Shown piece after piece: positions 467 to 54,856 of a DNA stretch of 64,000 bases. This stretch comes from Schistocephalus solidus (lineage: Eukaryota; Platyhelminthes; Cestoda; Diphyllobothriidea; Diphyllobothriidae). Position numbers and translations under genes: made by a program. The stretch covers positions 1 to 64,000 of the forward strand of contig WEDG01008658.1 in the NCBI GenBank assembly GCA_017591395.1, given 5' to 3'. The notes beneath the pieces were generated by a model. That model ran no database searches. It was not told the DNA's origin and worked only from the letters and a program-made list of their open reading frames with translations. Every line of letters starts with the position of its first letter. The stretch's first letter is position 1.

Positions 467-801
467 ATCCTGTGCCGGTCTTCATGCTGAGGTGAAAAAT
501 TACTGGTTCTGCAGACCTCAATCGGCTTATTTATCAGTTGACAGTGAACAGCTGCTCGCAGACATACCTGCTGGTGCAGAATATCGGATCCGTAACACTG
601 AATGGAGAGGTACTTCACCGGGCACCTGTGTTAACGCGTCCCTGTCCAGAAATTTAGTTACTCAATAAGCTGCAGTTTTTTCTCCTGAAAACACCTGAAA
701 CAAAGATCAGGAGTTTTTTTCACTGTCAGCTTGACCCTCTAATGTATATTTTTTTGACCTTGCCTGTAAACTGGCAATAAATAAATAAAATAAATAAAAG
801 C
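467..801 (+). mobile_element. LINE-A 3' UTR and A-rich tail
   Basis: Untranslated 3' end of the same LINE-A copy. It shares blocks with three other places in the window (10,991-11,335; 17,060-17,350; 24,840-25,200): a segment rich in CTGCTCGCAGACATACCTGC-like sequence, then a U-run hairpin, then a 'GACCTTGCCTGTAAACTGGC' block. It ends in AATAAATAAATAAAATAAAT-type sequence (772-800), which is the poly(A)-like tail and includes AATAAA signals. Confidence 0.8.
669..730 (+). other. ENE-like U-rich hairpin, LINE-A copy 1
   Basis: Stem 1: GCTG+CAG (669-675) pairs with CTG+CAGC (723-730) with a one-base bulge at 726. A U-rich internal loop follows, with six T on the 5' side (676-681) and seven T plus CA on the 3' side (714-722). 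Stem 2 is a perfect 7-bp CTCCTGA (682-688) / TCAGGAG (707-713) with an 18-nt apical loop. Two helices around opposing U runs, upstream of an A-rich tail, match the layout of ENE triple-helix elements. The sequence pairing is direct observation; the ENE function is inference. Confidence 0.55.
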
Positions 802-9748: not shown

Positions 9749-10990
9749 ATGAAGCGAAACTTTTTTTCACGCGCAATAAGAACCCATAGTAAAACATGGC
9801 ATCCCGTACTACTGGACTCCATTGGCAATCCTGTAGTTTATGACAAATTGACGGCTGATAGTTTTAACGTTTTCTTGTCCAGAACATTTATTGAAAATTC
9901 GACTGCTCCCCCTCCGCCCATCCAGGTTTGGACCGGTGCCGTCCTCGAGACCATAACTTTTACCCTCTGGGACGTAACCGTAGCCATTCGACGTTTTCGT
10001 CAATCTTATAGTACTGGACCAGATGGCGTACCGATCAGTATTATAAAGGCGGATGCTAATGATATTTTCCCGTCACTTCTATGTAAGATATTTAATCTAG
10101 CTCTTGAAAGTGAAACATTTCCCAGTGTATGGAAGGAATCGCACATTCTACCTATCCCCAAGCACGGTCAATCTACGTCATTTGACGATTTTCGGCCAAT
10201 CAACACACTTTCCGCAGCTTCGAAAATCCTGGAGACCTTGATCAAAGATAAGATGCTGTATCATTTAACTGAGAATAGCCTATTGAGTGCAGCCCAGCAT
10301 GGGTTCCTCAAAACAAGGTCTTGTGACACATGTCAGCTCTCTTTCTTTGATCATGTTCTAAAATCTAGGGATAATGGCTTTGCATTTTACATAGTCTATT
10401 TCGATTTCACCAAGGCCTTGGATCGTGTTGATCATGCCCTTCTTCTCCAGAAACTCTCCTCTTTCGTTAGATGTGGTAAACTTCTGAGCTTGATATCTTC
10501 TTACCTAAGCTCTCGAACACAAGATGTTAAGATCTCCAATGCTATCTTAAACTGGGCACATGTGAGGAGTGGAGTTATTCAGGGTAGTGTGCTAGGCCCA
10601 CTTTTATTTTGTCTTTTTGTCAATAATGTGCCAGGTTTATTTCGAAATCGTAGGCCCTTTATGTATGCCGATGATTTAAAAGTTGCCTATCAATACAAGC
10701 CGGCAGATCACGACACCGTGCTTGATCTAGTAAAAATGAGGCAGCTTGACCATCCTCGGCGTAGCAGTCATCGCAATGTCTTTTTATTTCTTCCATTAGC
10801 TCGCACAGTTAAGTATCGACGGTTGTTTTCGGTAAACGCCATGGCCATGTGGAATAAACTTCCCCATAATATAAAAATCCAACGGAGCTTTTTTTTGTTT
10901 AAGATAACTTTTAATAGTTTTTTGCATTCAGAACAGTTTCCAAAAATTCTGGGCACCGAAACGGTAGAATCCGTTTTCCTGTCCGACTGA
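9749..10990 (+). pseudogene. LINE-A reverse transcriptase (413 codons, internally deleted)
   Basis: This is the longest frame in the window. RT blocks appear in order: GPDGVPISIIKA (block 1), the HILPIPKHG and FDDFRPINTLSAASKILE blocks, QHGFLKTRSCDTCQLSF, YFDFTKALDRVDH (catalytic Asp of motif A), GVIQGSVLGPLLFCLFVN (motif B), and FMYADDLKVAY (motif C, catalytic YADD intact, near 10,661). After about 25 residues the frame jumps from the start of the thumb (LDLV) into the C-terminal tail (MRQLDHPRRSSHRN), which aligns with the fragment at 180-466. The thumb and following domain, about 150 codons, are therefore deleted in frame. The frame is long but the enzyme would lack its thumb, so I call it a pseudogene. 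CR1/Jockey-group affinity. Confidence 0.8.
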
Positions 10991-11335
10991 GTGCGTGGCA
11001 GCTGAACCAGATCCCAGGTGTTACCTTGAGGGATACGGCACCGTCTCTGCAGCCTGCATTCGCTGACTTCTTCGGCAGACAGTGAGCAACCGTACACGGA
11101 TGCTTTCTTGCCTGGGGCAGAATCCCGGTTCCTAGCAAAGACAGAGAGACTGCAATTGTGTTAACCCTTCCCTGATCTGAATTGCTATCATCATTACAGG
11201 CGGCAGTTTTTTCTCCTGAATAACATAACATTTATACTGATATATATTCAGGAGTTTTTTTCACTACCAGCCTCTACCCCCTAAATATTTTATCTGACTA
11301 TGCCTGTACACCGGCAATAAATACAACTTTTATTC
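10991..11335 (+). mobile_element. LINE-A 3' UTR with ENE-like hairpin, copy 2
   Basis: Homologous to 467-801. The upper stem CTCCTGA (11,213-11,219) / TCAGGAG (11,248-11,254) is perfect and the opposing T runs are intact (six at 11,207-11,212, seven at 11,255-11,261). The outer stem is weaker, GGC (11,202-11,204) with GCC (11,270-11,272) plus AG/CT. The tail ends GGCAATAAATACAACTTTTA. Confidence 0.7.
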
Positions 11336-17059: not shown

Positions 17060-17350
17060 TTGCCGGCTCTGCAGTCCGTAATCAGGTTATTTCTCAGTTG
17101 ACAGCGAGCAGGCGTTCGCCGGCATACCTGCTGCTAGTAAAGAATACCAGCTCAACAACACTGAAAGGAGAAGTACAACACTGTGCACCTGTGTCAATAC
17201 TTCCCTGTCCCGAACTTTATTCCGTTCAATAAGCTGCAGTTTTGTCTCCTGAAAGCACTTTGAGAACGATCAGGAGTTTTTTTACTATCAGCTTGACCCC
17301 CTATTGTATATCCTTTTTGACCTTGCCTGTTAACTGACAATAAAAAAAAA
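17060..17350 (+). mobile_element. LINE-A 3' UTR, 5'-truncated copy 3
   Basis: Homologous to 520-800: CAGTTGACAGCGAGCAG, GGCATACCTGCTG, AATAAGCTGCAG and the hairpin block, ending AATAAAAAAAAATAAATAG. The ENE-like element is at 17,233-17,292: outer GCTG/CAGC (17,233-17,236 / 17,289-17,292), T runs 17,240-17,245 (one G) and 17,277-17,283, and upper stem CTCCTGA/TCAGGAG (17,246-17,252 / 17,270-17,276). Confidence 0.75.
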
Positions 17351-17529
17351 TAAATAGCACAGATAAATATGCCCAGATCCTTAACAATGCCAGGCACATT
17401 TCGATCGTGGCTACCTACGCTTAGTTGAGACTGATGGTCGTCGCCAACAACCATAACGGAACATTTATGCCAAGAAAGGGTAATGTGCTATGTGCAGCAC
17501 CACTGGGCAAAGGCCCCAAGATCATTGTT

Positions 17530-23125: not shown

Positions 23126-24222
23126 ATAAACGCTCTCACTCCGGTAGATCGACCCTATGCCACTCGTAATTCCTCCATGATCATTTCACCACCCCTTAGC
23201 TTCACAACTAACAAGTCTCAGTTTTTTGCCTCCAAATATGCTTTCATCTGGAATAATCTTCCATTGCAAATTAGGTTGTCGTCCACATTAGCTATTTTCA
23301 AAACAAAGTTACGCAAACATTTAACTTCAGAAGATATAAAGTCCTTATTGTCTGTTTCCTTCCCTAACTCGCAACTTTTGGATTTCGAAAAGGGTCCTCC
23401 TGATATTTGAGGCAGCTCCCTTGATATTATAATAATCTCTTATTATATGTCCATCATCCTCTGCAGAGTCAATCTTATATTGGTCTCTTATTATATGTCC
23501 ATCATCCTCTGCAGAGTCAATCTTTGCATTCACTTTTGCCCCCTTCCTTTTAAAGTATCATCGCCAAGTCTTGACAACCTTGGTACTTTCCTCCGCTTTT
23601 GCAACCCCGAAGATAGTCGCCGAGATCTGTTGATGATCATGGCTGGTTCTGATGTTTTCGTCTCTTTGATTGGTGGACCATTCAGTCGGCAAGGTCGCAT
23701 CTCGATGATGATCTCATGACCTCTACTGTCCCCTCTTCGTTTTGACCCTGGTGTCCACGATGAGTTCGTCCTCTCTAACCTCCACTGGTGGTTACAAACA
23801 GTAGCTCTGACTGCTATATTATCTCTCGCATGACAAGGAGCGTTCCGAACCCTCATACGTTGTCAGCAACATCACAGCACTATCTTATTGCATCTAGCTA
23901 TTAATTTTTTAGTGAAGCAGTTTTTTCTCCTATTTTTTTTTAAATTGGCGGCTCGCTGAACTCCGCCGCCGATTTAACCGTAGGAGTTATTTTACTGCTT
24001 CTTTTCTAGTTCACCGTTATTGTTAAAGATTGTTGAATATTGTTTTAAAAATGGCAAATCGTTCTGAATCGGATATGCCTACCATATTGTTCATTTCTGC
24101 TGTTAATATGGCTGCTCACATAGTGCAGCAATTATCCACTTTGTATTTATTTATACCGCGATACTAAGTTTGAAATGACGGGGCTCTCTGGACCTTAAAT
24201 ATACAATTTATTTATTTATTTA
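23126..24222 (+). mobile_element. LINE-E 3' end nested in LINE-A
   Basis: Starts with CGCTCTCACTCCGGTAGATC, which matches 29,585 onward. Coding remnant 23,177-23,410 (SQFFASKYAFIWNNLP) is followed by an 800-nt 3' UTR and the tail AATTTATTTATTTATTTATC. It is severely 5'-truncated. A 48-bp unit is duplicated in tandem at 23,436-23,524 (CCATCATCCTCTGCAGAGTC twice). Confidence 0.75.
23914..24001 (+). other. ENE-like three-tier hairpin, LINE-E copy 1
   Basis: Basal stem GAAGCAG (23,914-23,920) / CTGCTTC (23,995-24,001), 7 bp perfect. U-rich internal loop: six T (23,921-23,926) against TTATTTTA (23,987-23,994). Middle stem CTCCTA (23,927-23,932) / TAGGAG (23,981-23,986). A further T run (23,933-23,941) is followed by an 11-bp upper stem AAATTGGCGGC (23,942-23,952) / GCCGCCGATTT (23,965-23,975, one G-U). 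The arrangement parallels the LINE-A hairpin. Pairing is seen; the triple-helix function is inferred. Confidence 0.6.
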
Positions 24223-25200
24223 TCTGGGTATAGAATATTACAACGGTCTTAATCTTTCAGAGCATTATGCCCTGATTGTCTCCAAAGCACTTATAACTAA
24301 CAGGTTTAGCCTCCAAAATTTTAAAACTACTGATATTAGACTCTGCATGTATAAAATATACGTTGGGTCTGGCCTGGAATACTTTATGTTTCTATTTGTT
24401 CTTCTACACCCTAGGGAACGGATGAAAATAAACTGTATCTTACATCTATTTCCTGAATGAGTTTTATAGTCAGGGTGCCGTAATCTGACGTATCAAAGAT
24501 GCTTTGGGCTTATAAAAATGCATCCCTTGTGGCTTCGTTGAGTACCGAAGGTAATATCTTTTTACTTTGTAAGTTTTTTAACAGTCGTAAATTTATTTCC
24601 CCAGCATTGTGGGGCAGCTTGAATAATATCGGCGCAGCAGTCAATGCAATGTCTTTTTATTTCTTCCCCTAGGACGCGCAGTTAGGCGTCGTCATTTTTC
24701 GGTAAACGCCATAAAAAAATGGAATATAAAATTCATGCAAACTTATTCTTTGTTTAAAAGAAATATAACTAGTTTTTTTCTGCATTCAGAACAGCTTCCA
24801 GGAATTCTGGGTACCGACACGACCGAATCTATCTCCCGGCTCGACTGAGCGCGCGGCATCTGATCCCGATCCCAGGTCTTATCTTCAGGTCGATGGCGCT
24901 TTCACTGCAGCCCGCAACCGATGAATTCTTCAGCAGGCAGACAGCAACCGTCCGTGGATGTACCTTGCCTGGTGCAGAATCCAGATTCCAAAAAAGAGGG
25001 ACTGTTAACACACTGCATTTGTGCTAGCCCTTCCTCTTTCCGAAATGCTATCATCCGCCGAAGTGCAGTATTTTCTCCTGAATAACATAAAGTTGGGAAA
25101 ACATTAATAACTATATATCTGCTAGTGTTTTTCAGTACTATCATGATCCCCACCACCTATTTATTCTGATATTGGCTGTAAACTAGCATTAAATACAATT
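24223..25200 (+). pseudogene. LINE-A C-terminal region and 3' UTR, right half of the split copy
   Basis: Coding remnant with GSGLEYFMFLFVLLHPRERM, then PLWLR and SRHKKMEY-like blocks matching 1-466, broken by several stops. From about 24,840 the 3' UTR block matches 11,000-11,330 (GACTGAGCGCGCGGCATCTG). The CTCCTGA of the hairpin is present at 25,075-25,081, but its partner has decayed to GCTAGTG. Confidence 0.7.
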
Positions 25201-25207
25201 ATTTATG

Positions 25208-28539: not shown

Positions 28540-29205
28540 ATGAAGATAAGAACGTCGTCCTCTAAGACTGTCACGGCAGAATTTTCAAGTGCGTCTTTTG
28601 CAAATCCTTTTACGATGAACTCTGAACCGGTTACGACGTTTAAGCCATCCTCATTCAATGTTATCAGCACCAATGATTTCTCCTTAGAATTAATTCGGAA
28701 GCAAATAATTCGTCTAAAAAACTCGTAGTCTTCTGCGACTGATGGTATCCTCCGATTGCTTAACCATATATTCTTTGTTTATCTTTTAAACGGATTCTTT
28801 CTTGACTCACGGAAGACATCTATTATTCTTCCTGTCTTCAAGTCGGGATCTCGTTCGGATGTTAATATTAATCGAGGGGTTCACAAAACCCCGGCTCTCG
28901 CAAAATTTCTTGAAAAAAATTATTTTGAATCAAATTCTTAAATTTTGCATAGAAAGTAAGCTTTTAAGCGTTTCGAAATATGGTTTTCTACCTGGAAGAT
29001 CATGCGAAGCGTGTCACTTAGGTTTTCTTAACCTCGTCACTTTCATTCGTAATGAGCAGCAGTCAGTGGTTTTGATCTACCTTGACCCGAGCAAAGCCTT
29101 TGACAAGGTACCACACAGACATCTTCTGGTGAAACTGGAAGCCCTCGGCATCCGGCCTCCTCTCCTTGACTTCATTGGTTCTTACTTATCTTACCGCAAC
29201 TAGAG
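28540..29205 (+). pseudogene. LINE-E reverse transcriptase, N-terminal half
   Basis: Successive frames 28,540-28,728, 28,756-28,941 and 28,802-29,203 carry RT blocks: KNS..SATDGI (block 1), TSIILPVFKSGSRSDVN, YGFLPGRSCEACHLGFLN, IYLDPSKAFDKVPHRHLL (motif A with catalytic Asp in YLDPSKAFD), and the ALGIRPPLLDFIGSYLSYR block. The frame then stops, and motif B/C sequence is absent. LINE-E is a CR1/jockey-like family distinct from LINE-A. Confidence 0.8.
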
Positions 29206-29871: not shown

Positions 29872-30334
29872 CTGATTAAACATTGGTTTCTTAATAGGCT
29901 TCCATTATCCTCTGCAGAATTAATCTTCAAAGCCACTTTTTCATCCACTCCTTTTCAACTATCATCGCAAAATCTTGACAAGATTAATACATTCCTCCAA
30001 TTTCGCAACCCTGTCGATGTTCTCCGGGATCTGTTGATGATCGTGCTGGATTCTGATGGTTTCTCCACCTAGGTGGTGGACTGTGCAGTCATCAAGGTTG
30101 CATCTTGTGATGATCTAGAGGACCTATACTTTTCCCTATTCGTTTCAACCCTGTTATCTACGATGAGCTCTTCCTGTCTCACCTCCCTGATGGCTATAAA
30201 CAGAAGCTCTGGCTGTTATACAATCTCTCCCACGACAAGGAGCGTTCCAAACCCTCATAATTTGTCACCAACATCACAGTAATACCCCACTCCATCGTAC
30301 CACTCCCGTCAAATCTAGCTAGTATTTTTGTAGC

Positions 30335-30424
30335 GAAGTAGTTTTTCACCTAGGTTTTCTATGTAAATTGGCAGCTCACTGAAATCCACCGCCGTTTTAA
30401 CTGTGGGCGTTTTTGTCACTGCTT
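30335..30424 (+). other. ENE-like hairpin, LINE-E copy 2 (drifted)
   Basis: Equivalent of 23,914-24,001. The basal stem is AAGTAG (30,336-30,341) / CTGCTT (30,419-30,424) with one G-U. The T run (30,342-30,346) faces GTTTTTGTCA. The middle stem CACCTA pairs imperfectly with TGGGCG. Retention of the basal stem with a wobble and of both T runs despite drift argues for shared structure. Confidence 0.45.
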
Positions 30425-30752
30425 ATTCCGTAGTTCACCGTATATTCGAAAGATTGTTGACTTTTGTTTTAAACATGGCAAATCGCTGTGCATCGGATGT
30501 GCGAACTATACTACTAAATTCTGCTGTTCATATGACTGTTCACATAGTGCAGCAATTATCCACTTTGAGTACCCTATTTGTAACGTAAAATTAAGTGCGG
30601 TATACAGAGAAACCGTGTGGGTTGCCAAGGTACAAAAGGCGGTCATAAAATTTGACAAGTGGTGCACGACTCTCGAGGGTTAAGATAAATGCCTCATCGC
30701 TCAGGCTCGTTGCGGAACATAAATATACAATTTATTTATTTATTTAAACTCC

Positions 30753-35000: not shown

Positions 35001-38000
35001 TCTCCCCAGACTTCTGGCAATTCGCGCCGTGTTCGCCGAAAGAACCATCGGGCCATTAATTGGTCTCTTAAATCTGATCTTCATCAGGACATCCAAGCTA
35101 TTCCTTTCTGTTATTAGTACTTGGATTATTTTTAATCAAGTTTTTTAGGTGATTTTCTCGCATTTGATCGGATGTTCACTTTTTCAGGCCATCCATTTTC
35201 CTCTTTGGTCGAAGCCGCTCTTCGTTCTTGGCTTCTTCTTCTCCTGCGTCGCCGCTCTCGTACTGCAATTTTTGGCCTTTGAATGCACCCGGTTAACATC
35301 GGCCCTGACCACCAGTGTGATTGGTGTGATAAAGGTTCGCATTTTATTTCCTTCCCACCGCCTGCATTTATGAAACTAGCGCATTTCGCGGGAGAGGCAT
35401 TTTTTACTTAAATCATCTTAGTCGCTTAATAAACCTGCTCGTTCGTAAATCATTCTTTCCTAGCCGCCGTTGTTTTTGTGGTCCTGCTTTCATGGATTAA
35501 GTCGAATGTTTGCCTATTGAAGGAGGGAGGGAGAGAGCAGAACAGAACAGCATATTTCCGACTTGAGCACGCGACATAATCGACCGAACGCATTTTCCTC
35601 TAGAGGCTACACAGCTAAGATTCACATCTGCGCTGTAGTCGTTTGCACTGTTTTAAGCTAGGTACCTGAAATACCAATTTTTCACTGGCCATTAAGAATG
35701 ACGAGCTTATTTTGTGAGTGAGTTGTCTGATAAAGTGGCGTAATAGTCAAAAACGAGCTTATTTGGGTATTCAGCAGCTGCTGCCTTTTTATTTTCAGTT
35801 TTTTTGCCATCGCGGGGTCGAACATGCACTTTTTGTTGAAAAAGAGCATGGTTCTCCAGTTTGTAGCAAAGATTTAATCATTTTCTTGATCACCCGACAA
35901 GATTAGCTCCTTAGTGGGCTCCAAAATGCCGACAACTCTTGCTCAGCAAACGGCGTTCCTAGAACGCGATGTTTTTTCTTTATTGTTTTAAAGAAAAACA
36001 TTTCCTGTAATAGAATTGCGGATGCGGCGGTGGGGAGTTTGCGATGCAGTCATAAAACAAAACTCCTGTGCTAAGCTGACTTTCTATCAGCATTCTTAGA
36101 ATTTCCATTCGACGCCGATTTAGCCTCTTTGGGCGCACTTAGCGCCACCCTCAAGCATTACTTTGTAGAGACAGTCAAAAAAAGGGAAAGAGAAAAAAGT
36201 ATTACTCTTTCCTTTAGTGCTCGGTTTTATTTGTGCCTTTTGTGGCAAATGTCCAGTATGGGCAATCACATGTCAAACCAGCAGCTGAGGTCTCCTGCAA
36301 TACTGGAATGGTGATAATTTTGGGTTTTATGGGTGTGGAAAAATGGCAACAAGTAAGGAAATATAGAGGGATAAACAGTATATAAGCAGAATATCGTTTA
36401 AGTACTCCAATTCCGTGGCCAATTGTACGTTCCCATGTATTTTCTCGTCCTGTAACACAAGAATTTTTGGCCTTTGTCCCACCGTTAACGCTCCCAGACT
36501 TAACCAGTGTATCCCTTAAAATGCCATTTTATATCCCTATCGACACTATTTACCGCTTAATTTACATTTTATCGTTTGTCTCGGTAAACTACCTCCTTCT
36601 GTTTTCCCTCAATCTTCTGGTTATTTGTTCAAATCTCCCATCTTCATCCCGCGTAATCTGACACTACGTTTATTACTTAACGCCTTCAGACATTTGGTTG
36701 TAAGTGTATTATTTAAACTTTGCTAACCATCCCACATTATGGAACCGTCTTTCCATTCAAATGGGCTTATTTATAACACTCCTACTTACGGACCGGCACT
36801 AAGTAAGCCAACTCAGGTGATTTAATCGAGACAGGCTAGGTTAAAACAGAACTCTAATAGAACTACCCGAACGAGCTGCAGTTGGCTGCCGGATATATTC
36901 TACAAAGTTAACCAAATGCGAAGCATTAAATATGGGAGTCGCAGAAGTCCTTATCAGCCCCGGACTTGGATAGATACTCTCCCACCTTGGGGGACAATGA
37001 TACCATCCTTAAATCCTACAGAGAAAGGATACGGCTTTTGGAGAGTCGGTTGAAACAGAAAATTAAATTATCCACCCCCGGACATAGATAGATACTCTCC
37101 CACCGCGAGAAACAATGATACCATCCTTAAGTCCTACAGCGAAAGGATACAGCTTTTGGAGAGTCAGTTGAAACAGAAAATTAAATTATCCAGCGGAGAC
37201 GCACCTGTGAATACATCCCTATCGGAGTCGAAACACGGCGCTTTCGATGAGTTTCCACTGTTGGATGTTCGCGGCCGTTGCTCCCCTTTGATCCACAGAT
37301 TAAGCAATCATGCATTAGTGAGTCTAGCTTTTCACAGTGCTACGAAGCTAAGAAATTGGGCTGTCAGGGTTGTCACCAGCGCCCTAGGGCTCCTCATTTC
37401 TCCCTTACCCAACGGGAAATGCTGTATTTTGATGGAAACCCTCTCAAATATTGGCTGTTTCTAAGAAAATTTGAGAGCGGAATTGCAAAAAGGGTTAGTG
37501 ACAACGAAAGTCGACTCTCCTGCTTGATCGGGTGAGGCCAGAGAAGCTGTTGAGAAGTACGCCATTTTGGAGCCTAGTGAAGGGTACCGCGAGGCTCTCA
37601 AAACCCTTCGACGACGGTTCGGCCAATCCCACTCCATTGCCAGGGCTCACATAGATAATTTAATTGACGGTGGAGTCAAAATCTATGGATCCTACCACCC
37701 TGATGAAGTTGGCTCGGGAAATGAGAAACTGCAAGAACACTTTGCAGCAGTTAGAATACATAGCAGATTTAAATTCATCTAGGACGCTGGCTGCGATCGT
37801 CAGGCGACTTCCTCAACCACTTCAGTTCAAATGCTCAGAAACTGCTTGGTAGAGAGCCAATGTTTGATCTAGCAGAATTTGTAGACGAGAAAGCCGATGT
37901 ATTGATGTTACACCAATCCTACTCTTCAGGTCCAGTTTCTGCGCCCAATCGTTCCCCGTAGGATCGAGGACCGATGCACAAGGCATGTACGCATCACACA

Positions 38001-41000
38001 CAGACTGTAGTAACAGTCCCAGTACCTAGCTCCTCGGTACTGCGCCAGCGGTGTCTGCAATGTGAAGAAACTCATTACACCGACCAATGTGGCATGTTTG
38101 TTGCCCTCAACCTGCCACAAAGACTAGCTTTCGTGGAACTTGACCGTTTATGTCATTCTTGTCTAAAACCCAATCGTGATGCTATCAACTGTAGGTCGCG
38201 TAAGACATGCGGCGTTGCACGGTGCTCCATGCGCCATCATCCGCTGCTGCACCGACAAGAAGACGGGGCTGGTGTGTTTCCGACGAAAAGCCCACAGAGT
38301 TGAGTACCGAAACATCCCACTGTCTCAACAGCCGCGCTGAGCAAGTTTTTTCTTTAGGAATGTTACCAGTGGAAGTTTTGGACCTCTCGGTTCAGTTACG
38401 ACGTATGCCTTCCTCGATAGTGACTCGGACACTGCGCTAATCGATGAAAACTTGTTAAAACGCTTAGGCCTCATTGGCCAACCAGCAGTGTTGTCAGTAT
38501 CCACCGTCGTTCAAACAGCAGAGGTGAGCTCTGAAATAGTGGTTTTTAAGATAGGTGCGATACAAGGGCAAGACCGACTGAAAATGAAAAAAGCCTGGTC
38601 CGTCAGCCATCTCCCCAAGTTAAAACGTTTTGCTTTAACTATAAGCCAGGCAGCGCGTTGGGAACATTTAAGCGACATCGAACTCCCCTTTGGTGCGCTA
38701 AAAGGCGTGGCTTGGAAGGTTGCCAACTGACGGGATAACTCGGACCGCGTGGTCAGCCCAATGTGTGTTTTGTGTGGAGTGGCTGACTGTCGGACTGAGA
38801 GTCAGGCTGTAATGGCTCCTTCTTAATGTGGCCTATATTGCACTCTTACTCCGTGGGATCTGAGCCAGGTGTGGTGGTACGCCCAGGGGCGGATCCGGCC
38901 GCGCCAGCCACCTGCGCCCTCTCCCATCTCCGGTCTTCTTGACTCTGTCTTGACTCCGGGCTCAGGTGGGGAAGGAGGAGAGAGTGCGGTAGCTGCAGCG
39001 CAAGGCTACTATCACTTAAAACTAATTCACTCGCAAGTCACCGTCCCTGCACCGCCTGGTGTGGAGCATACGGTGGACATCATCGAACTCGACGGTCAAA
39101 CTATCGCATCGTACCCGAACATCGATACGGCGGACGGGAGGATACATACGCTGTTCGGACCCCCCCTCGGTTGGGTACTCATGAGGCCAGTAGCCGAACA
39201 AGATCGTAGAAGAGCAAATGTAGGCTTTTGCGCCATAAAGATCGAGTCACAGAAAGGCTAGAACAGATGTGTAACTTCGAGTTCGGTGAGCCCAAGCCCT
39301 TAGGCAAAGCACATTCCGTAGACAACAAAAGAGTTTTGGAGTTGTTTGAATCCCACCAATTACTGCAGGGGCCAGACCTGGCCAACTGTTTATGTGGAGT
39401 TTTAACTAGATTCCGTGAGTTCCCGTACGTAGCGGTTCGAGTTCCGAATTCGCAAAGTTCGTTTCTACGCTTTCTGTGATGGCCAAATGGTAACTTAGCA
39501 TACGATCCTGAGGCTTATAAAATGGTAGTATATCCATTCGGGGCAACCTCTACCCCATGTTTCGCTATCTACCCACTAAATCTATCGATAAATCAGGTGA
39601 CAGACGTCCCCGCAGCTCACTGTACCAAGTACTTTCAGAGGTGTTTTTACGTCGACGAATGTTTGATCAGCAGTGACTCTGTGCAAGCCCTTACGGACGT
39701 GGCTTTTCACTTGCGAACCTGCGAAATCATGGCTTCCGTCTACATAAATGGCGCAGCAACTCGGTTAACACCCTTATATTTATCCCTGAGGAAGAGCTAG
39801 TTGACGGGGGAATGTGCCTCGATCTTAAGCCAGCCGTAACCACAGGACACTAGGTATCGAATGGAACAAACTTATAGTCACATTCAGTTTCAAAGTCCAG
39901 TGCCCTACGGATACGGTTACCAGAAGAGCGATGCTCTCTTATATTTCAACCCTGTATTATCCACTTGGGTTTATCGCTCCCGTTCTGTTACCGGCCAAGT
40001 TACTACTGCAGCAATTGTATCGATCGAATCTCAGATGGGACGATAAAATCGACGACAAGTACGTGCGACTGGTTTACCTGGATGAAAGCGTTTCGGGGCC
40101 TTGACAATGTTCATCTCCGACGCTGCTCGACCCCGGCTGCTTTAAGTATCTTTGAGCCGTATCAACTACATGGTTTCTCGGATGCGTCCAAGAACGGGTA
40201 CGGGGCCGTAGTCTACCTTCATGCAACGATTAAAGACGGTACTGCATGCATGTTTGTGTGGGGCAAATCTCGAGTCACGCCTCTAAAGGTCCAAACCATA
40301 CCACGGTTAGAACTCACCGCTGCAGCTCCGGTCGCCAAACTAGTGAAACAGGCGGAGTTGGAACTAACACTACTAATCTCGTCCAAGGCCATGTGGACAG
40401 ATTCACTGGCAGTCTTACAATTGATACGGAACACTACGTTACGTCTCGAAACATTTGTAGCTAACCGCATCTCTACCATATTAGACTTATCAGACGCTTC
40501 ACAATGGAGGTACGTGAATTCCAAGAGGAACCCAGCAGACGTAGCTTCAAGAGGTGTAGGTGGTGACAGGCTGGAAAAGAATATGTGGCTCACGGGTTCC
40601 GCATTCCTAAGCAAGAAGTCTGACGAATGGCCCAAGGAACCAGGTCAACGACCCATTGCTGTTTCAAAGATGCGTGACGTTACTGTAAATGCCGTCCTTG
40701 TTGGGGATCATTAGCTGACGAAGTTTTCAGATTGCGTTAGCTTGGGGAAACTTCTAATGCATGTTGCTTGGCTGTGACGATTTGCAGTTTTTCTTAAGAA
40801 AAATGTATCGCATTGACCAGAACCCGTTTCAAAGGTACTCACCGTGGCAGACCTAGAAGGTGCCGAAAGCGATGTCTTGAGGTTGGTCCAGAGAATGAGC
40901 TTAAGTGCGTGCAGAGCGATTTGCGAACCACCGATTTCAAGAAGTTGAAAGCGATCAGCAGTCTGCTAAAGTACCTTTCACCATTCTTCTCTAACGGTCT

Positions 41001-44000
41001 AATTAGAGTGGGAGGGTAACTTCAATACGCGCCAATTCCGTACGAAACAAAACACCCGGTCATCCTCCCTCAAACCCATTTCGTATGCCGACTAATCATA
41101 GAACACGTTCATCGACTAAATGTTCATGTAGGGATATCACACACAAGTGCTATCCTACGAGAAATATACTGGATAATTCGGGGCCAGGCGCTCATCAAAC
41201 TAGCCGTTCGGTCTTGTTTTGTGTGTCGCCGCTGGATAGACTGGAGCCGTATATCTCACCTTTCACGTTCACAGGGGTCGATTACTTCGGACCATTTCAG
41301 GTGAAATTAGCCCGACGGTCAGAAAAGAGATATTTTTGCCTGTTCACATTCCTCAGTATTCGCGCGGTCCACATCGAGGTTTCTGTGTGCTTTCGGTAGT
41401 TGCGTTGCTCGAAGAGGATGCCCACGAAAGCTTTACAGCGACAACGGGCCCAACTTCAAAGAGGCTGAGAATGAACTGAAGAGGTTCCTGAAGAAATAGA
41501 ACCAAAACCAAATAACTAGCTCTCTTGCGGAGAAAGGATGCGATTGGATCTTCACGCCCCCGATAGCCAGTATGCGAGTGCCTGATCCGGTCTATCAGAC
41601 GGATATCACGCTCCATTTTGGGTTTAGAGATGGTCACAGACGAGGTCTTCCTAAAAAAATTACCGAAACCGAAAAGATAATGAATGACCGACCGCTGGTG
41701 AAGAACATTGTGAACCCGACCGAGTACGCTGTACTCACTCCAAAAATGTTTTTGCTGAGCGCTCGGAACCTTTTGTCGTCTGCTGAAAAGTGCAGTCTCT
41801 GTTGACTTTACCGGAAGTGGCGCCAGGCACAACATCTTGCTGACATATTCTGGAAAAGATGGATAAGTGCCTACCTACCATCGGTGCAGGCCAGACACAG
41901 GTAGCTTGGTGAGGCCCCACAACTCCATATTGGAGATCTGATCCTTGTAGTTGACAAAGTGGCACCACGAGGACACTAGAAGAAAGCCGTCGTGGAAGAG
42001 CTGCTCGAATCAAATGACAGTAAGGTGAGCGATGTTGTACTGAGAACGTAACAAGGGAAATTAGTGAGAGATGTCCGCATTTATGTGTGCTAGAGAACCA
42101 CAAACCAAGCCTGGGTGGGAGTGTACGTTCCCACGTATGTTGTCCTCCTGTAACTGGAATTTTAGGCCTTTTTCGTACCGTTGACGCTCCCGGACTTAAC
42201 AGTGTATCCCTTCAACTGACATTTTATATCTCTATCGACACTATTTACCGTTTAATTTGCATTTTATCGTTTGTCTCGGAAAACTACCTCCTGTTGTCCC
42301 CCAATTCTCTAATTATTTGTTTGAATCTCCCATCTTCCCGCGTAATCTGACACTACTTTTATTATTGTATGCCTCGAGAAATATAGTTGTAAGTGCATTA
42401 TTTAAACTTTGCTACTCATCCCACATTATAGAACTGTTTCCATCCTAATGGGCTTATTTTTAGCCCTTCTACTTACGGAAGGGCACGACGAAAGCCAACT
42501 CAAGCGATTTAATAAAGACAGGCTATACAGCGGCTAGGCTAAAACAGAACTCTAGTAGAACTACCCGAACGGGCTACAGTTGGCCGCCGCATATATTCAA
42601 TAATAATAACGTGGTTACACATTCAATCCTTAATAGTTTTTGATTGCACTGCTTACCTCAGCCATCCTTTGTAATCCGCCTTGACCGAACGCCGACTCCA
42701 CAATCACGCTCCTTCAAATCCTTGTTGATCTTAACCCTGAAGACTTGGTTGCCATGCCGCTAATTCTCCCTCTCTACCCCGGCCTCTTTCCATTTCAGAA
42801 CGTTGTTGTCACCTACGGTGGGATGTTTGTTGGTGGTGATTACTTATTCACAGTGACCAACTTCACCGGCGTTACCGTCAGGCAAGTTTTGGCCTCCCTC
42901 CTTCACTCTTTTTGTTTCCTGCCCCTAATTGTTCTCTTACTCTGGCATTTGACACCTGGACCTAGTGGTTAAGTGCACGCTAAAACTGTCGCGTTAGGGC
43001 AAATAGAAACCCTGTGTAGGTAACCCTGTTAGGCCCCATCTGCAAATGCCTGAGGATGCAGTCCCCCTAGTATCACAGACACTTTGAGAACGTCCGCCAA
43101 GATCGGTGCGGTTGTGTCTTGGTGCTCTGTGTGAAGTTCTTGTAGTTGGTTACATGGCGACGAGCACTATTCACTCGATAGGTATAACTGATGAGGATGA
43201 GAGCGTCTGGAGCTACCGTTTAAATCCACCATTGCCTCCTCAGTCAGGATCGCCTGTGCTTTACAGCCCCGTTCTAGATTTTAACACTACGGCAAAACCG
43301 AAGGCCATACTTTGTACCGCTTCAACCGACGGTGATTCCAAGAAGCTAACTGAAATCTTGAAGACAAATGGAAGCCTTCTGATCTGCCGGCCCCACCACG
43401 GTGCAGTGATAGCGTCATCGGCAGACACGGCATTACGATCGAGGGAGTATTTCGTCCGAATTTAAAGCCATAACCTCGACTGACATTCACTTAAAGGATG
43501 CTCCGCCGTCCGAGCCTGTCTGCAATTATAGCGCACCATCTACCGAAGATATATTTTTGCATATAAATAAACTGGAGAAGTCGGTGAGATCTACCCTTTA
43601 AAAGACACGTTATGGTCATCTTCAAAAATGTTAGCACAGAGGCCGTGCCCAAAAACCAGCCCGGTGCCGCTGCGACGCTGAACCTCAATGCGAACATGCA
43701 TTGCGTGTTATTCTCCATAGACATTACAGGTAAAGTCTTTGTAATCTTCCTCTGATATCGTTAATGCTGACACTGCGACCCCTAGACCGGGCGGGAACAT
43801 GCTAAGTGTCTCTTCTCGCTCCACCGGATTCTGGAATACCTCCAGCTGACGTCATAAACTCGCTCTCCCCTCTTTCGAGGAGGTAAACCTCAGCTTTCGG
43901 ATCTGTCTAAATGTGTTTAAGCTCACGACGCCTGGTCTGGTCATCGGAATTCAGGTAGTTAGAGCATTGTCTGTACTCAGGTCTTGCCCTTACTGTCGTG

Positions 44001-50829: not shown

Positions 50830-51701
50830 TTACCGCAGGTTGTCGTGGAGGCGGATGTGTCCTAGTAAGCCCATGCTGTGGGTAAATGTGCGGGAGCAGT
50901 GAGAGCAGTGGACGTGGGCGCGGTGACTGTAAGTCGGAGCCCTAGGCACTGGTTCACCAGCCTCCATGCGATGGATTTGCAGGTGACCTACCAGGCCGAT
51001 GCGTGAGTTGAAGTTGCGGGCGCAGTGTGGGCAGGATAAGTCGGTAGAGGCTGTGGGGATGTCAGTTATGGTATTATGGGTGGAAGTGGTGGTATGAAAG
51101 GCAGGAGCGGAGTGTGCATGGTGTATCGGTGTTGTTGGCATTGCCGTGAATTCCGCTGTCATGGATGCGCATGTGACCGAATAGGCCCATGCGATGAGTG
51201 AATGCGCGAGGACAGTGGGGGCAGTGGAGGTAGTGAACTTTGCTGTGTGTTGGTGCTCCCGGATCTGGTTCACCAGTCTCTGTAAGATAGATTCGCAAGT
51301 GACCACCTGCCGATGCGTGAGGTGAATGTGCGGTTGCATTGAGGAAACTTTAGAAGAGAGACCCCATCGCTGGTGACAGTGGTGGTGACGGCGACGGCGG
51401 CGGTGGTGGGGGAAACAGGCGATGAGTAGAGGGATGTGGTCTCTATGATGGTGGGAGCAATGGAATTGATGCCAAGAGTGAGAGTGGGGGAGTCTGAAGG
51501 AGGGTTGGCAGAAGTTGACGTAAAAATTGGATTTGTCAGATTGCGTCCGAAGATGTCCAACAAGTCCGATTCACGCGTGGAAGATGCGTTGACAGCGAGG
51601 GCATGTTGACAGGGCCTGGGCATTAAAGATGTTGGTCCGGGGCGCTGGTGACTTTCGTGCCGCTCTTTTGGCCTTGGCGGCGGAGATCCTGTTGGCCTCA
51701 T
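50830..51701 (-). pseudogene. LINE-G C2H2 zinc-finger region
   Basis: Overlapping minus-strand frames carry about four C2H2 units: FPQCNRTFTSRIG (partial, 51,360-51,310), CPHCPRAFTHRMGLFGHMRI with H (51,230-51,165), CPHCARNFNSRIGLVGHLQI with H (51,035-50,965), and CSHCSRTFTHSMGLLGHIRL with H (50,905-50,840). Each has C-x2-C-x12-H-x3-H spacing. A Ser/Thr/Pro-rich segment (ITDIPTAST; TTAAVAVTTTVTS) precedes or separates them. The region begins 32 bases after the RT stop and is broken by frameshifts. It could be a C-terminal nucleic-acid-binding module of the polyprotein or a separate ORF. Unrelated to host transcription factors as far as I can see. Confidence 0.75.
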
Positions 51702-51732
51702 AGATTGCTGAACCAGTCTTCACGGATCTTCT

Positions 51733-52518
51733 CTATGCCGGTCTATCCTGGACGAGGTCCTCCCAGGTCGCCTTGTTGATTTGCAGTTGCTTCAGCGATT
51801 TCTTCAAAGTGTCCCTGTATCGTCGTTTTTGAACTCCCTGTTGGCGAACACACGTAGCGACATCTCCGTAGAAAAGTCGTTTGGGTAGTCGCTCGTCGTC
51901 CATTCTTACCAGGTGGCCGCTCCATCGCAGTTGCACTTGCCTCAGCAACGCGTGGATGCTAAGGATTCCGGTCCGCTCCAGGACTTCCGTATCCAGGATC
52001 CTGTCTTGCCATCTCAGCATCAGTATTCTGCGAACGCAGCTGAGATGGAAGTGATTCAGCTTCCTGGCTTGGTTCGAGTAGACGGTCCAGGTCTCCGCTC
52101 CGTGAAGGAGTGTCATCAAAACGACGGCCTTGTACATCTTCAGTTTAGTGTTCAGGTGAATACCGTGACGATTCCACACGGAGGCCTGCAGCCGGCCGAA
52201 GTCCTGACTGGCTTTGGAAATCCGTTGTGCAACCTCGTTGTTGATTCTTATGTTGCGTGACAGCGTGCTTCCCATATCAGCAAAGGATTCCACATTTTTG
52301 AGTTGAGTGCCGCTGACATTGATTCGGGGAGCATTGTATTCCGCGCTGGGCGGCGGTTGGTGCATGACAACCGTTTTGGCTGTAGTGATTGTTAATACGA
52401 AATGGGAGCTGCCTGCCGCGAAGAGGTCCATGCTTTTTAGCATGTCCTCCTCAATCACGGTGTTAAGGGCACAGTCGTCCTCGAAGAGCAAGTCATGGAC
52501 TGAGAAGTAGACACGCAC
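51733..52518 (-). pseudogene. LINE-G RT motif C, thumb and C-terminal domain
   Basis: A 261-codon minus-strand frame. It begins [20 protein letters not shown]: the catalytic block should read FADD but has FEDD. It continues with [75 protein letters not shown] and RLPKRLFYG, ending [12 protein letters not shown]. The HLRCLRxILxxxWQDxxxxxxVLxRxxxxSIxxLLxxxQLRWxGHxxRMxDxRLPK sequence is the typical C-terminal signature of this LINE group. Overlaps the upstream frame by 64 bases, so a frameshift lies near 52,500. Confidence 0.85.
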
Positions 52519-53309
52519 GTTGGAGCCTGCATACGCCGGCAGTTAAAGTGCCCGTCAGTTCTGTAGGCGATGCGGATACCAGGCTGCTCATCATGGTAGG
52601 CGTCCATCAGCATAGCCGAGAACATGAGACTGAAGAGGGTGGGGGCCAGTACGCAGCCCTGCTTCACTCCGTTGGTCACTGCGAATGCTTCGGATACCGT
52701 CCCGTTGTCAGTGACGCGCGCCGTCATCCCGTCATGAAGCTGACGCACCATATGCGTGAACCGCTTAGGACAGTCGAATTTCTGAATGACTTTCCACAAA
52801 AAGTCACGATTCACCATGTCAAAGACTTTCGTCAGATCCATGAAGGCAGTGTTTAGGTGAGGTGGCATCTCCTGGCACTTCTCTTGTAGCTGGCGGGCCA
52901 CAAAGATCATGTCGGTTGTTCCGAGGTGTCGGCGGAAGCCACATTGTCTTTCCGGGAGCAGGCTCTGCTCTAGGTGACCGTTCAGACGATTGAGATGGAT
53001 ACGGGCGAAGATCTTCCCGGTGATGTTGAGCAACGAGATGCCTCTGTGATTATCACAGAGTTGCCGGTTCCCCTTCCGCTTGTAGAGATGGACGATGGTC
53101 GCGTCTTTGAAATCCTGAGAAACTTGTCCTTGGCACCACATCTCCTGGAAGAATGTTGTGAGTTCTGCCATCAGCCGGGGCCCACCGAGCTTGTAGACTT
53201 CCGGTGGGATTGCGTCGAATCCCGGTGCTTTACCGCTGGAAATCTGCTGCACGGCCCGGATGGTTTCTGGAAGGGAAGGCGGCAGATCCAGGTCATTGTT
53301 CGTGTCCAC
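52455..53309 (-). pseudogene. LINE-G RT fingers and palm
   Basis: A 284-codon minus-strand frame. RT blocks in order: ISSGKAPGFDAIPPEVYKLG (block 1), DATIVHLYKRKGNRQLCDNH followed by RGISLLNITGKIFA, LLPERQCGFRRHLGTTDMIF, NTAFMDLTKVFDMVNRDFLW (motif A; the catalytic Asp is in MDL, the usual KAFD has become KVFD), and TNGVKQGCVLAPTLFSLMFS (motif B). It runs out of frame before motif C, which lies in the next frame. The polymerase would copy the element RNA at a nicked target. Confidence 0.87.
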
Positions 53310-53674
53310 TTGAGGGATCCGGTCAATGGCAGCATCGGAGATGGCTGATGAGCAATTAAGGACACTTCTGAAGTGCTCGGCCCAGCGCTTCAGAGTTTGC
53401 GATTTCTCTGTCAGCAGTGTTTTGCCTTCAGAGCTGCGCAGCGGTGCGGTACCCTTGATACACGGGTCGTAGATGGGCTGAATGGCTTTGAAATTTTTTA
53501 AATTTAATTGCGGTCCGCATACCCCTGTATTTCCTCAGCCTTTCGGATCATCCAAGCATCCTGCATCTTCCGCAGGCGTTGCTGTAAAAGGCGGCGGCGT
53601 GCGAAGGAGGCTGCTCTGGTGGCGTCAGGCTGAAGGTCCATGTAGGCTATGTGTAGTCCATTCTTCTCCGCGAG

Positions 53675-54856
53675 TTAGTTGCTGATGTCAGCGTCTTTGT
53701 CATCAAACCAGTCCTGGTGTTGACAGCGTGTGCTTCCTAGTAGTTCAAGGGCGGTGGACTGATTGACATTTTGCAGTTTGCACCATCGTGTTTCCACGGT
53801 AGCATTATCAACTGGAGCATGCAGGTCCTCCAGTTTCTCGGTTATTTGGTTGCTGAAATAAAAACAGTGAGCAGGCATATTTAATAAAAGAGTATTTAAC
53901 TTACCTGGCGGCCGCTTACCTTGAGGCCTTCGTCGGGGTTGCATTCGGAGCCTCATCTGGGAGTTGACAAGGCGGTGATCTGGCCAAACATTGGCATCAC
54001 GGATCGCCTTGGTTACCAGCACGTCCTGTCGATCTCGCCTCCGGACGAGAACAAAGTCCAAGCTGCCAGCGCCGTGACCGAGGAAGCATCCACGTGGCCT
54101 TCTCCCGCGTCCGAAGGCGGAAGAATGTGTTGGTCAGCAGGAGACGGTGTTCCGCACACGTGCGAAGAAGAAGGAGACCGTTATCGTTACAGCTACTGAG
54201 ACTGTGGGGACCCAGCACTCCCTGCCAGGCAGCGTGGTCTGTCCCGACGCGGGCGTTGAAGTCACCAAGGACAATTAACTTGTCCACCTTCGGCACAGTC
54301 GCCAGCAGGGCATGCAGGTCCTCATAAAATTTGTCCTTCGCCGCATCAGAGCTCGTCATTGGGGGAGCGTAGGCGCTGATGATGGTGGCGAACTGGCCTC
54401 CCCGAAGAGGTAGGTGGAGGCTCATCAGGCGATCACTGATACCCTGCGGCAGACAGGGCAGACGTCCCACGATGTCGTTTCGGATGGCAAAGGCAACAGC
54501 AGCGTCGTGTCACTCTGCCTTTGGCCAGCCGCTTCAGAAGAAGGTGTAGTCTGCAACCACCTCCTCTAGCTGACCCTGTTCAGAGAATCGGGTCAAGCTT
54601 AGAGGAGCAATGTTCACTTGTAGCGCGCCAGATCCTGAGGGACTAGCGCCTTCCTCCATTCCGGCCGTCTGCTCCTAGGATTGTCTAAAAGGGAACGAGC
54701 ATTCCAGACTGCTAGTGTGAGTGGACTCACCCGAGCAGCCTGGAGGGTATGGCGAGGGGATGGGGATGGGGGGTATTGTTGTTTGTTGAGTTTTACGACC
54801 GCGTAGTTTGCGATCTGCGAGCCGCGGCCGGCTGCAGATGACGTGATAACCAGCAT
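53675..54856 (-). pseudogene. LINE-G AP endonuclease and linker
   Basis: Frames 54,856-54,614, 54,470-53,997 and 54,061-53,675 read: LAVWNARSLLDNPRSRRPEW (N-terminal WNARSL), [17 protein letters not shown], then [35 protein letters not shown] (catalytic GDFN), [20 protein letters not shown], and in the next frame [20 protein letters not shown] (SDH-type catalytic His as PDH). The order and spacing fit an APE domain of normal length. Frameshifts lie near 54,480-54,610 and 54,050. The last frame continues into the linker ending HQDWFDDKDADISN. Confidence 0.83.

What the first reader, a model, noticed from the sequence alone, without database searches (positions are those of the whole stretch)
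669..730. ENE-like U-rich internal-loop hairpin in the LINE-A 3' UTR, conserved in three copies
Two short helices flank opposing U runs (6 and 7) just upstream of an A-rich tail. The 7-bp upper stem CTCCTGA/TCAGGAG and both T runs are kept in copies at 669-730, 11,201-11,272 and 17,233-17,292, whereas the 18-28-nt apical loops differ completely in sequence and length. Conserved stems and U runs with a free loop is the pattern expected for selection on structure. ENE elements (MALAT1, viral PAN RNA, many plant and fungal transposons) have exactly this layout and protect RNA by forming a U-A-U triple helix with poly(A). A LINE using one in an animal parasite would be new to my knowledge.
Basis: partly seen in the sequence, partly recalled or inferred. 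Interest (0 to 1): 0.85.

Follow-up and report, generated by a model that had tools for sequence, protein, structure and literature searches.

The report
ENE-like hairpins in tapeworm LINE RNAs
Jumping genes (LINEs) of a tapeworm-like genome carry, near the end of their RNA, a conserved hairpin with two facing runs of U that looks like the known clamps that protect an RNA's poly(A) tail; the structure recurs with changed stems in several LINE families, but the clamp itself has not been tested.

Summary
The hairpin is real. Its 7-bp upper stem occurs three times in the window (none in 100 shuffles), between facing T runs and a longer lower stem. Copy 3 has TTTTGT, not T6. The same LINE's terminal stem-loop has 5,710 genomic matches.

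Main result: other LINE families of this genome carry the same layout with different stems: E (window 23902-24011; decayed 30326-30435), F and G. RT pieces of three lineages are 37-39% identical. A search fixing only stem, T5+, stem, T5+ gave 56 distinct hits in the fetched sequence, all in these families, and none in 952 kb of IMG/VR contigs. Dealing 3' arms out anew among families never pairs as well as the true set (1 of 120; 1 of 720), though single arms are less clear.

The layout is that of an ENE. Triplex, poly(A) binding and stabilisation are inferred; no family seen encodes a long A tract at its end, so a host poly(A) tail must be assumed. Best rival: a protein-binding site (ORF2 or a host U-binding protein).

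The parts
667..732 (+). ENE-like hairpin, LINE subfamily A: lower stem 667-675/723-732 (U726 bulged), U6 676-681, upper stem 682-688/707-713, U7 714-720, spacer CA 721-722
   Evidence: sequence, pattern, sequence-blind descriptor hit at 672-726, the only one in the window, 0 in 40 shuffles
760..799 (+). 3'-terminal stem-loop TTGCC-TGTAAACT-GGCAA, AATAAA (776-781) and (TAAA)n tail of the same LINE; possible reverse-transcriptase recognition end
   Evidence: sequence; 5,710 genomic matches (up to 1 mismatch) of a pattern for this end, reversed control 2; role by analogy with stringent-type LINEs (PMC4176376)
11198..11273 (+). ENE-like hairpin, subfamily B: lower stem AGGC-GGCAG/CUACC-a-GCCU (one C x A), U6 11207-11212, upper stem from 11213 / to 11254, U7 11255-11261
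   Evidence: 29 further B copies fetched and printed
9749..10990 (+). Reverse transcriptase ORF of the subfamily B LINE
   Evidence: Pfam RVT_1 2.1e-20; 101 related places scored out of 49,176 candidates
17230..17294 (+). ENE-like hairpin, subfamily C: 5' run TTTTGT (17240-17245), upper stem 17246-17252/17270-17276, U7 17277-17283; one C x A in the lower stem
   Evidence: 29 further copies fetched and printed
25060..25140 (+). Decayed copy: 5' U-run and 5' arm recognisable, 3' arm lost
   Evidence: BLAST of the LINE to 24610-25206
23902..24011 (+). ENE-like hairpin of another LINE family (E): GAAGCAG 23914-23920, U6 23921-23926, CTCCTA 23927-23932, TAGGAG 23981-23986, TTATTTT 23987-23993, ACTGCTTC 23994-24001; further T runs outside the lower stem
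   Evidence: fold z -6.40; 1,373 exact E/F-type cores in the genome, control 0
30326..30435 (+). Decayed family-E hairpin downstream of the LINE RT fragment at 28790-29203 (linked by position)
   Evidence: BLAST 77% to the 23.8-24.2 kb copy; RT

Best explanation
The hairpin is a selected RNA structure in the 3' UTR of several LINE families of a tapeworm-like genome. Most likely it works as an ENE: the two facing U-runs, held between two helices closed by G-C pairs, take up a stretch of the mRNA's poly(A) tail as U-A-U triples, hide the 3' end from deadenylases and raise the amount of LINE mRNA. A separate stem-loop at the very 3' end (760-777 in copy 1) would then serve as the start site for the LINE's reverse transcriptase, so that the protective tail is not copied. 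SHOWN: the hairpin, its recurrence in three LINE lineages, stems that change together, kept U-runs. INFERRED: polyadenylation of the LINE RNA, the triple helix, protection, benefit to mobility, and the role of the terminal stem-loop.
For: (1) Three copies, none in 100 shuffles. (2) A descriptor fixing no sequence but T runs gives 75 hits in 361,890 fetched bases, 56 after removing overlaps (A/C 26, B 21, E 4, F 4, G 1; two rows, L168 and L175, assigned by eye), all in these LINE families; 0 in 113 IMG/VR contigs, 952 kb. (3) Arm swaps: the true pairing is the best of 120 (5 families) and of 720 (6), for the lower stem, the lower stem outside the shared core, and the upper stem. (4) RT pieces of three lineages are 37% (101 aa), 38% (230 aa) and 39% (97 aa) identical, yet share the core CAG-U6-CUCCU..GGAG-U7-(C)ACUG. 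(5) Between one A and one B element (72% identical over 1,111 columns) the hairpin arms are identical runs of 18 and 19 nt. (6) One F copy (L128) folds with two successive U-rich internal loops, as in double ENEs. [quoted passage not shown] the ENE of the plant LTR element Evade forms a triplex with poly(A), protects from deadenylation, raises mobility and needs G-C pairs next to the U-runs (PMC12501189, passages).
Against: No family seen ends in an encoded A tract; tails are (TAAA)n, (ATT)n, (TTTA)n or a longer repeat, so poly(A) on the RNA is assumed. A plain AATAAA is present in A/C, in F (L128) and in 2 of 30 printed B copies (the rest ATTAAA); not in E or G. In family A the computed minimum pairs the 3' U-run with apical A's. 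Arm by arm the swap test is weaker: the cognate 3' arm is the best or joint best for 5 of 7 lower and 2 of 7 upper 5' arms, and F's lower stem outside the core does not pair (+1.2 kcal/mol). Of four genomic matches printed, three are A-type copies with the sixth upper pair broken (A opposite C), one has A-U. Several sampled copies carry one-sided stem changes, as dead copies would. The outermost lower pair is broken in recurrent C variants (CAGCUGG, CAGCUCG). The double loop is predicted in 1 of 2 F copies folded and in 0 of 2 E copies. Longer identical A/B and C/B runs (26, 34 nt) lie upstream. The old B-type copy L203 lacks the C-G pair above the loop. Stem arms were cut by hand; families are few and not independent; no R-scape.
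Confidence: 0.56

Rival explanations
1. The hairpin is a binding site for the LINE's own ORF2 protein (recognition of its template RNA), with no triple helix.
For: Stringent-type LINEs recognise 3' stem-loops through ORF2 (PMC4176376, first of five parts read: abstract, introduction, part of methods and results). The core is conserved in sequence as well as in pairing, as for a protein site.
Against: A second stem-loop right at the 3' end already has the position known for that role (pattern for it: 5,710 matches). RTs 37-39% identical share the U-loop core, although recognition in two zebrafish LINEs is strict for the cognate tail. The hairpin lies about 200 nt from the tail in E and about 45 nt in A.
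Confidence: 0.18
2. The facing U-runs bind a host protein with a taste for U-rich RNA, or act as an export or translation element, without poly(A).
For: T runs of 5 or more on both sides in most of the copies classified (found with a pattern that favours T runs).
Against: A single-stranded U site would not need an opposing U-run between two helices that change together (inference).
Confidence: 0.15
3. Shared descent only: one ancestral LINE 3' UTR had this hairpin and it persists without function.
For: The core sequence is similar across families; E and F are 73% alike over 132 nt.
Against: Stems that change together and kept U-runs across RTs at 37-39% identity; apical loops of A, B, E/F and G show no evident similarity (by eye).
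Confidence: 0.06
4. Chance or low-complexity artefact.
For: T runs are common in AT-rich DNA.
Against: 0 in 40 shuffles of the window, 0 in 952 kb of other contigs; genomic pattern counts of 5,710 and 1,373 with reversed-pattern controls of 2 and 0.
Confidence: 0.01

Closest known systems
ENE (element for nuclear expression) of plant and fungal transposable elements, e.g. Evade/Copia93
   Same: 3' UTR hairpin, U-rich internal loop with facing U-runs, G-C pairs beside it, retrotransposon RNA; a double loop in one folded F copy.
   Different: Here in non-LTR LINEs of a flatworm; genomic tails are short tandem repeats; triplex, poly(A) binding and stabilisation untested.
Viral PAN RNA ENE and MALAT1/MEN-beta 3' triple helix
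   Same: Layout of helices around a U-rich loop close to the 3' end.
   Different: MALAT1-type RNAs carry their own A-rich tract (recalled; passages); none of the LINE families seen does. No sequence comparison was made.
3' stem-loop of stringent-type LINEs (UnaL2, ZfL2)
   Same: Stem-loop and short tandem repeats at the 3' end.
   Different: That role fits the terminal TTGCC..GGCAA stem-loop better than the U-loop hairpin (inference).

Membership tests
ENE | Stem-loop with an internal loop of facing U-runs (about 5 or more each) | tested here: met
   runs of 5 or more: A/C 33 of 35 (5') and 35 of 35 (3'), B 24 of 25 and 24 of 25, E 8 of 9 and 7 of 9, F 4 of 4, G 1 of 1 (6 of 80 rows left unclassified there; rows found by a pattern that favours T runs); sequence-blind search
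ENE | G-C pairs directly beside the U-runs | tested here: met
   C-G above and G-C below in the A, B, C, E, F and G sequences used, not above the loop in the old copy L203; a U-A pair may intervene below
ENE | Helices kept while sequence changes | tested here: met
   arm swaps: true set best of 120 and of 720; weaker arm by arm, 5 of 7 and 2 of 7
ENE | Close to the 3' end of a polyadenylated RNA, or upstream of an encoded A-rich tract | tested here: inconclusive
   position met (about 45-200 nt from the tail); AATAAA in A/C, F and 2 of 30 B copies; no uninterrupted A tract at the end; no transcript data
ENE | U-A-U triple helix with poly(A) | not testable with these tools
   needs melting, probing or structure work
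ENE | Raises RNA stability or abundance | not testable with these tools
   needs a reporter assay
Rfam-described RNA family | Match to a curated covariance model | tested here: not met
   0 at gathering in the window; three matches at E 3.2-4.5, far below gathering, in 600-830
LINE (CR1/jockey-like, name from recall) | Endonuclease and reverse transcriptase upstream, 5' truncation, 3' tandem repeats | tested here: met
   Exo_endo_phos and RVT_1 in ORFs of L182; RVT_1 in the window copy; truncated copies by eye; tails

The most novel reading that the evidence does not exclude
Poly(A)-clamping ENEs, single and double, are an old and general part of flatworm (perhaps animal) LINE 3' UTRs, in elements whose reverse transcriptase starts at a separate stem-loop, so that RNA protection and priming are split between two modules.
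Probability: 0.38. Interest if true: 0.8.

Novelty: new member of a known kind. Interest (0 to 1): 0.6.

Why it matters
If it binds poly(A), this extends tail-clamping RNA structures from mainly plant and fungal transposons to the LINEs of a parasitic flatworm, and gives thousands of natural variants with which to test the rules of RNA triple helices. It would also suggest how a LINE that does not copy its poly(A) tail can still protect itself with it. In the listings of eight searches of the held library (top rows only) I saw no title on such elements in flatworm LINEs; the main survey (Tycowski 2016) was not held.

Tried and rejected
Rejected: a tail-sharing SINE (L194 looked like one; its junction occurs once in the genome). 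Rfam families. IMG/VR matches of the stem with a 3' T5 (112 stretches): 0 of 113 matches has a 5' T4; probably terminators. The shared core in IMG/VR: 0. RT relatives in genome contigs (20 loci) and viral contigs (1 locus): no descriptor hit; a weak control, since only 12 of the 20 have 500 or more bases after the RT match. MAFFT alignments of mixed families misplaced stem arms, so pairing was tested by arm swaps; the count of structure pairs, fold_alignment and covariance models were not used. A genome count of the exact A/B/C core did not complete.

Full report
WHERE. The window is contig C5832 of a 603.7-Mb genome. The LINE's RT has its best partial high-identity hits in Sparganum, Schistocephalus and Dibothriocephalus proteins (59-86% over 14-32% of the query); by E-value the top named flatworm hits are Trichobilharzia and Schistosoma, 37-40%. 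The host is thus probably a diphyllobothriid-like tapeworm (inference); no call names the species.

THE ELEMENT. Copy 1 reads, 5' to 3': AAGCUGCAG, U6, CUCCUGA, an 18-nt loop, UCAGGAG, U7, CA, CUG-u-CAGCUU: two helices around facing U-runs. About 28 nt further on is a small stem-loop (TTGCC..GGCAA) running into AATAAA and (TAAA)n. Copies 2 and 3 share the plan, with TTTTGT as the 5' run in copy 3 and one mismatch in the lower stem of each. A fourth copy is decayed.

GENOME-WIDE. A pattern for the terminal stem-loop has 2839+2871 matches with up to one mismatch, against 2+0 for the reversed control. Queries with copies 1, 2 and 3 each returned 40 scored matches out of 1527, 1969 and 1839 candidates. 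Three subfamilies can be told apart, A, B and C. In 14 of 16 both arms are recognisable by eye, several with one-sided changes; L204 is truncated inside the hairpin, L194 lacks it. In fetched loci 60 of 64 distinct tails have the hairpin upstream; most of these loci were fetched with hairpin-bearing queries, so this is biased.

OTHER FAMILIES. A loose pattern search of the fetched loci and window (80 rows, at least one a chance match, L176:1020-1097) brought up the same layout with different stems. E: GAAGCAG-U6-CUCCUA..UAGGAG-U7-ACUGCUUC (window 23902-24011, L130, L138, L166, L168, L184, L190, a divergent L191; decayed at 30326-30435). F: GCAG-U7-CUCCUACC..GGUAGGAG-U7-CACUGC (L128, L131, L132, L189). 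G, one copy: GGGC-GACAG-U6-CUCCU..GGGAG-U8-CACUGUC-u-GCUC (L186:1869-1940). E/F-type cores have 662+711 exact matches, control 0 (the pattern itself asks for the pair, so this is a copy count, not a covariation test). A pattern excluding G at the sixth upper position has 39+49 matches, 15 of them exactly as long as the G hairpin; of the four whose letters were shown, three are A-type copies with that pair broken and one has A-U. E and F are alike over 132 nt (73%). RT pieces of the A/B/C, E and G lineages are 37-39% identical over 97-230 aa; for G and the decayed E copy the RT is linked to the hairpin by position on the same strand.

STATISTICS. A descriptor that fixes no sequence other than T runs (lower stem of 4 or more, T5+, upper stem of 5 or more, T5+) gave 75 hits in 361,890 bases, overlapping loci included, 56 after removing overlaps, all belonging to these families. 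The window has one hit; 40 dinucleotide shuffles of it have none. 113 IMG/VR loci (952 kb) and 20 other LINE contigs (103 kb) have none; 8 of those 20 have under 500 bases after the RT match, so they may lack the 3' UTR. The fetched loci were chosen for A/B/C LINE ends, so their count is not a frequency; E, F and G came in by chance.

COVARIATION. Relative to the shared core, outer lower-stem pairs and upper pairs 6-8 differ on both sides between families (upper pair 6: G-C in A/B/C, A-U in E/F; read). Dealing the 3' arms out anew among families gave poorer total duplex energy: only the true set reaches its own value, 1 of 120 (5 families) and 1 of 720 (6 families, with the old B-type copy L203), for lower stems, lower stems without the core, and upper stems. 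Against this, arm by arm the cognate partner is best or joint best for 5 of 7 lower and 2 of 7 upper arms; F's lower stem outside the core does not pair; the outermost pair is broken in recurrent C variants. Arms were cut by hand. Fold z-scores run from -2.2 to -6.4.

MECHANISM. Between one A and one B element the hairpin arms are identical runs of 18 and 19 nt in a 72% background; longer runs (26; 34 for C/B) lie upstream, probably in coding sequence. With the possible U-A pair, five 5' U's remain; I recall that known ENEs have at most five triples (seen in no call). In Evade, an ENE melts biphasically with A20, depends on U-runs and adjacent G-C pairs, and its deletion lowers RNA stability and new insertions (PMC12501189, passages). 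The same source says most of about 200 known ENE motifs are from plants and fungi. A meeting report says ENEs offset intron loss in transposon mRNAs (PMC10078130, passages). I recall one fish species among them; no call confirms this.

LIMITS AND SCORES. No transcript data, no relatives in other flatworms, no triplex-aware energy model, no R-scape. The structure is well supported, the ENE function is inference from layout.

Noticed in passing
window 51733-54509 (-): RTE-like LINE (name by eye): RVT_1, and an Exo_endo_phos_2 match just below the curated cut-off, with apparent C2H2 zinc-finger motifs encoded downstream (51270-51719 frames, by eye).
   Followed up: no
window 37054-42211: Remnants that look like a BEL/Pao-type retroelement polyprotein (by eye; not searched).
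   Followed up: no
L194 / G000:C11:243863-244007: A very short LINE end joined to another repeat that resembles window 17395-17480 by eye; the junction pattern matches once in the genome.
   Followed up: yes
P0002, P0010, P0052: LINE-type RTs filed under Streptococcus dysgalactiae, presumably eukaryotic contamination of a bacterial assembly.
   Followed up: no
L209-L228: LINE-type RTs in contigs of bacterial and archaeal bins (Bathymodiolus symbionts and others), presumably host contamination in GTDB genomes.
   Followed up: partly
L128:225-375, L131, L189, L132: Family F has a second pair of facing T runs outside the lower stem, a possible double ENE; by eye the outer helix is intact in L128 and L132, mismatched in L131 and L189; L128 and L131 were folded.
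   Followed up: partly
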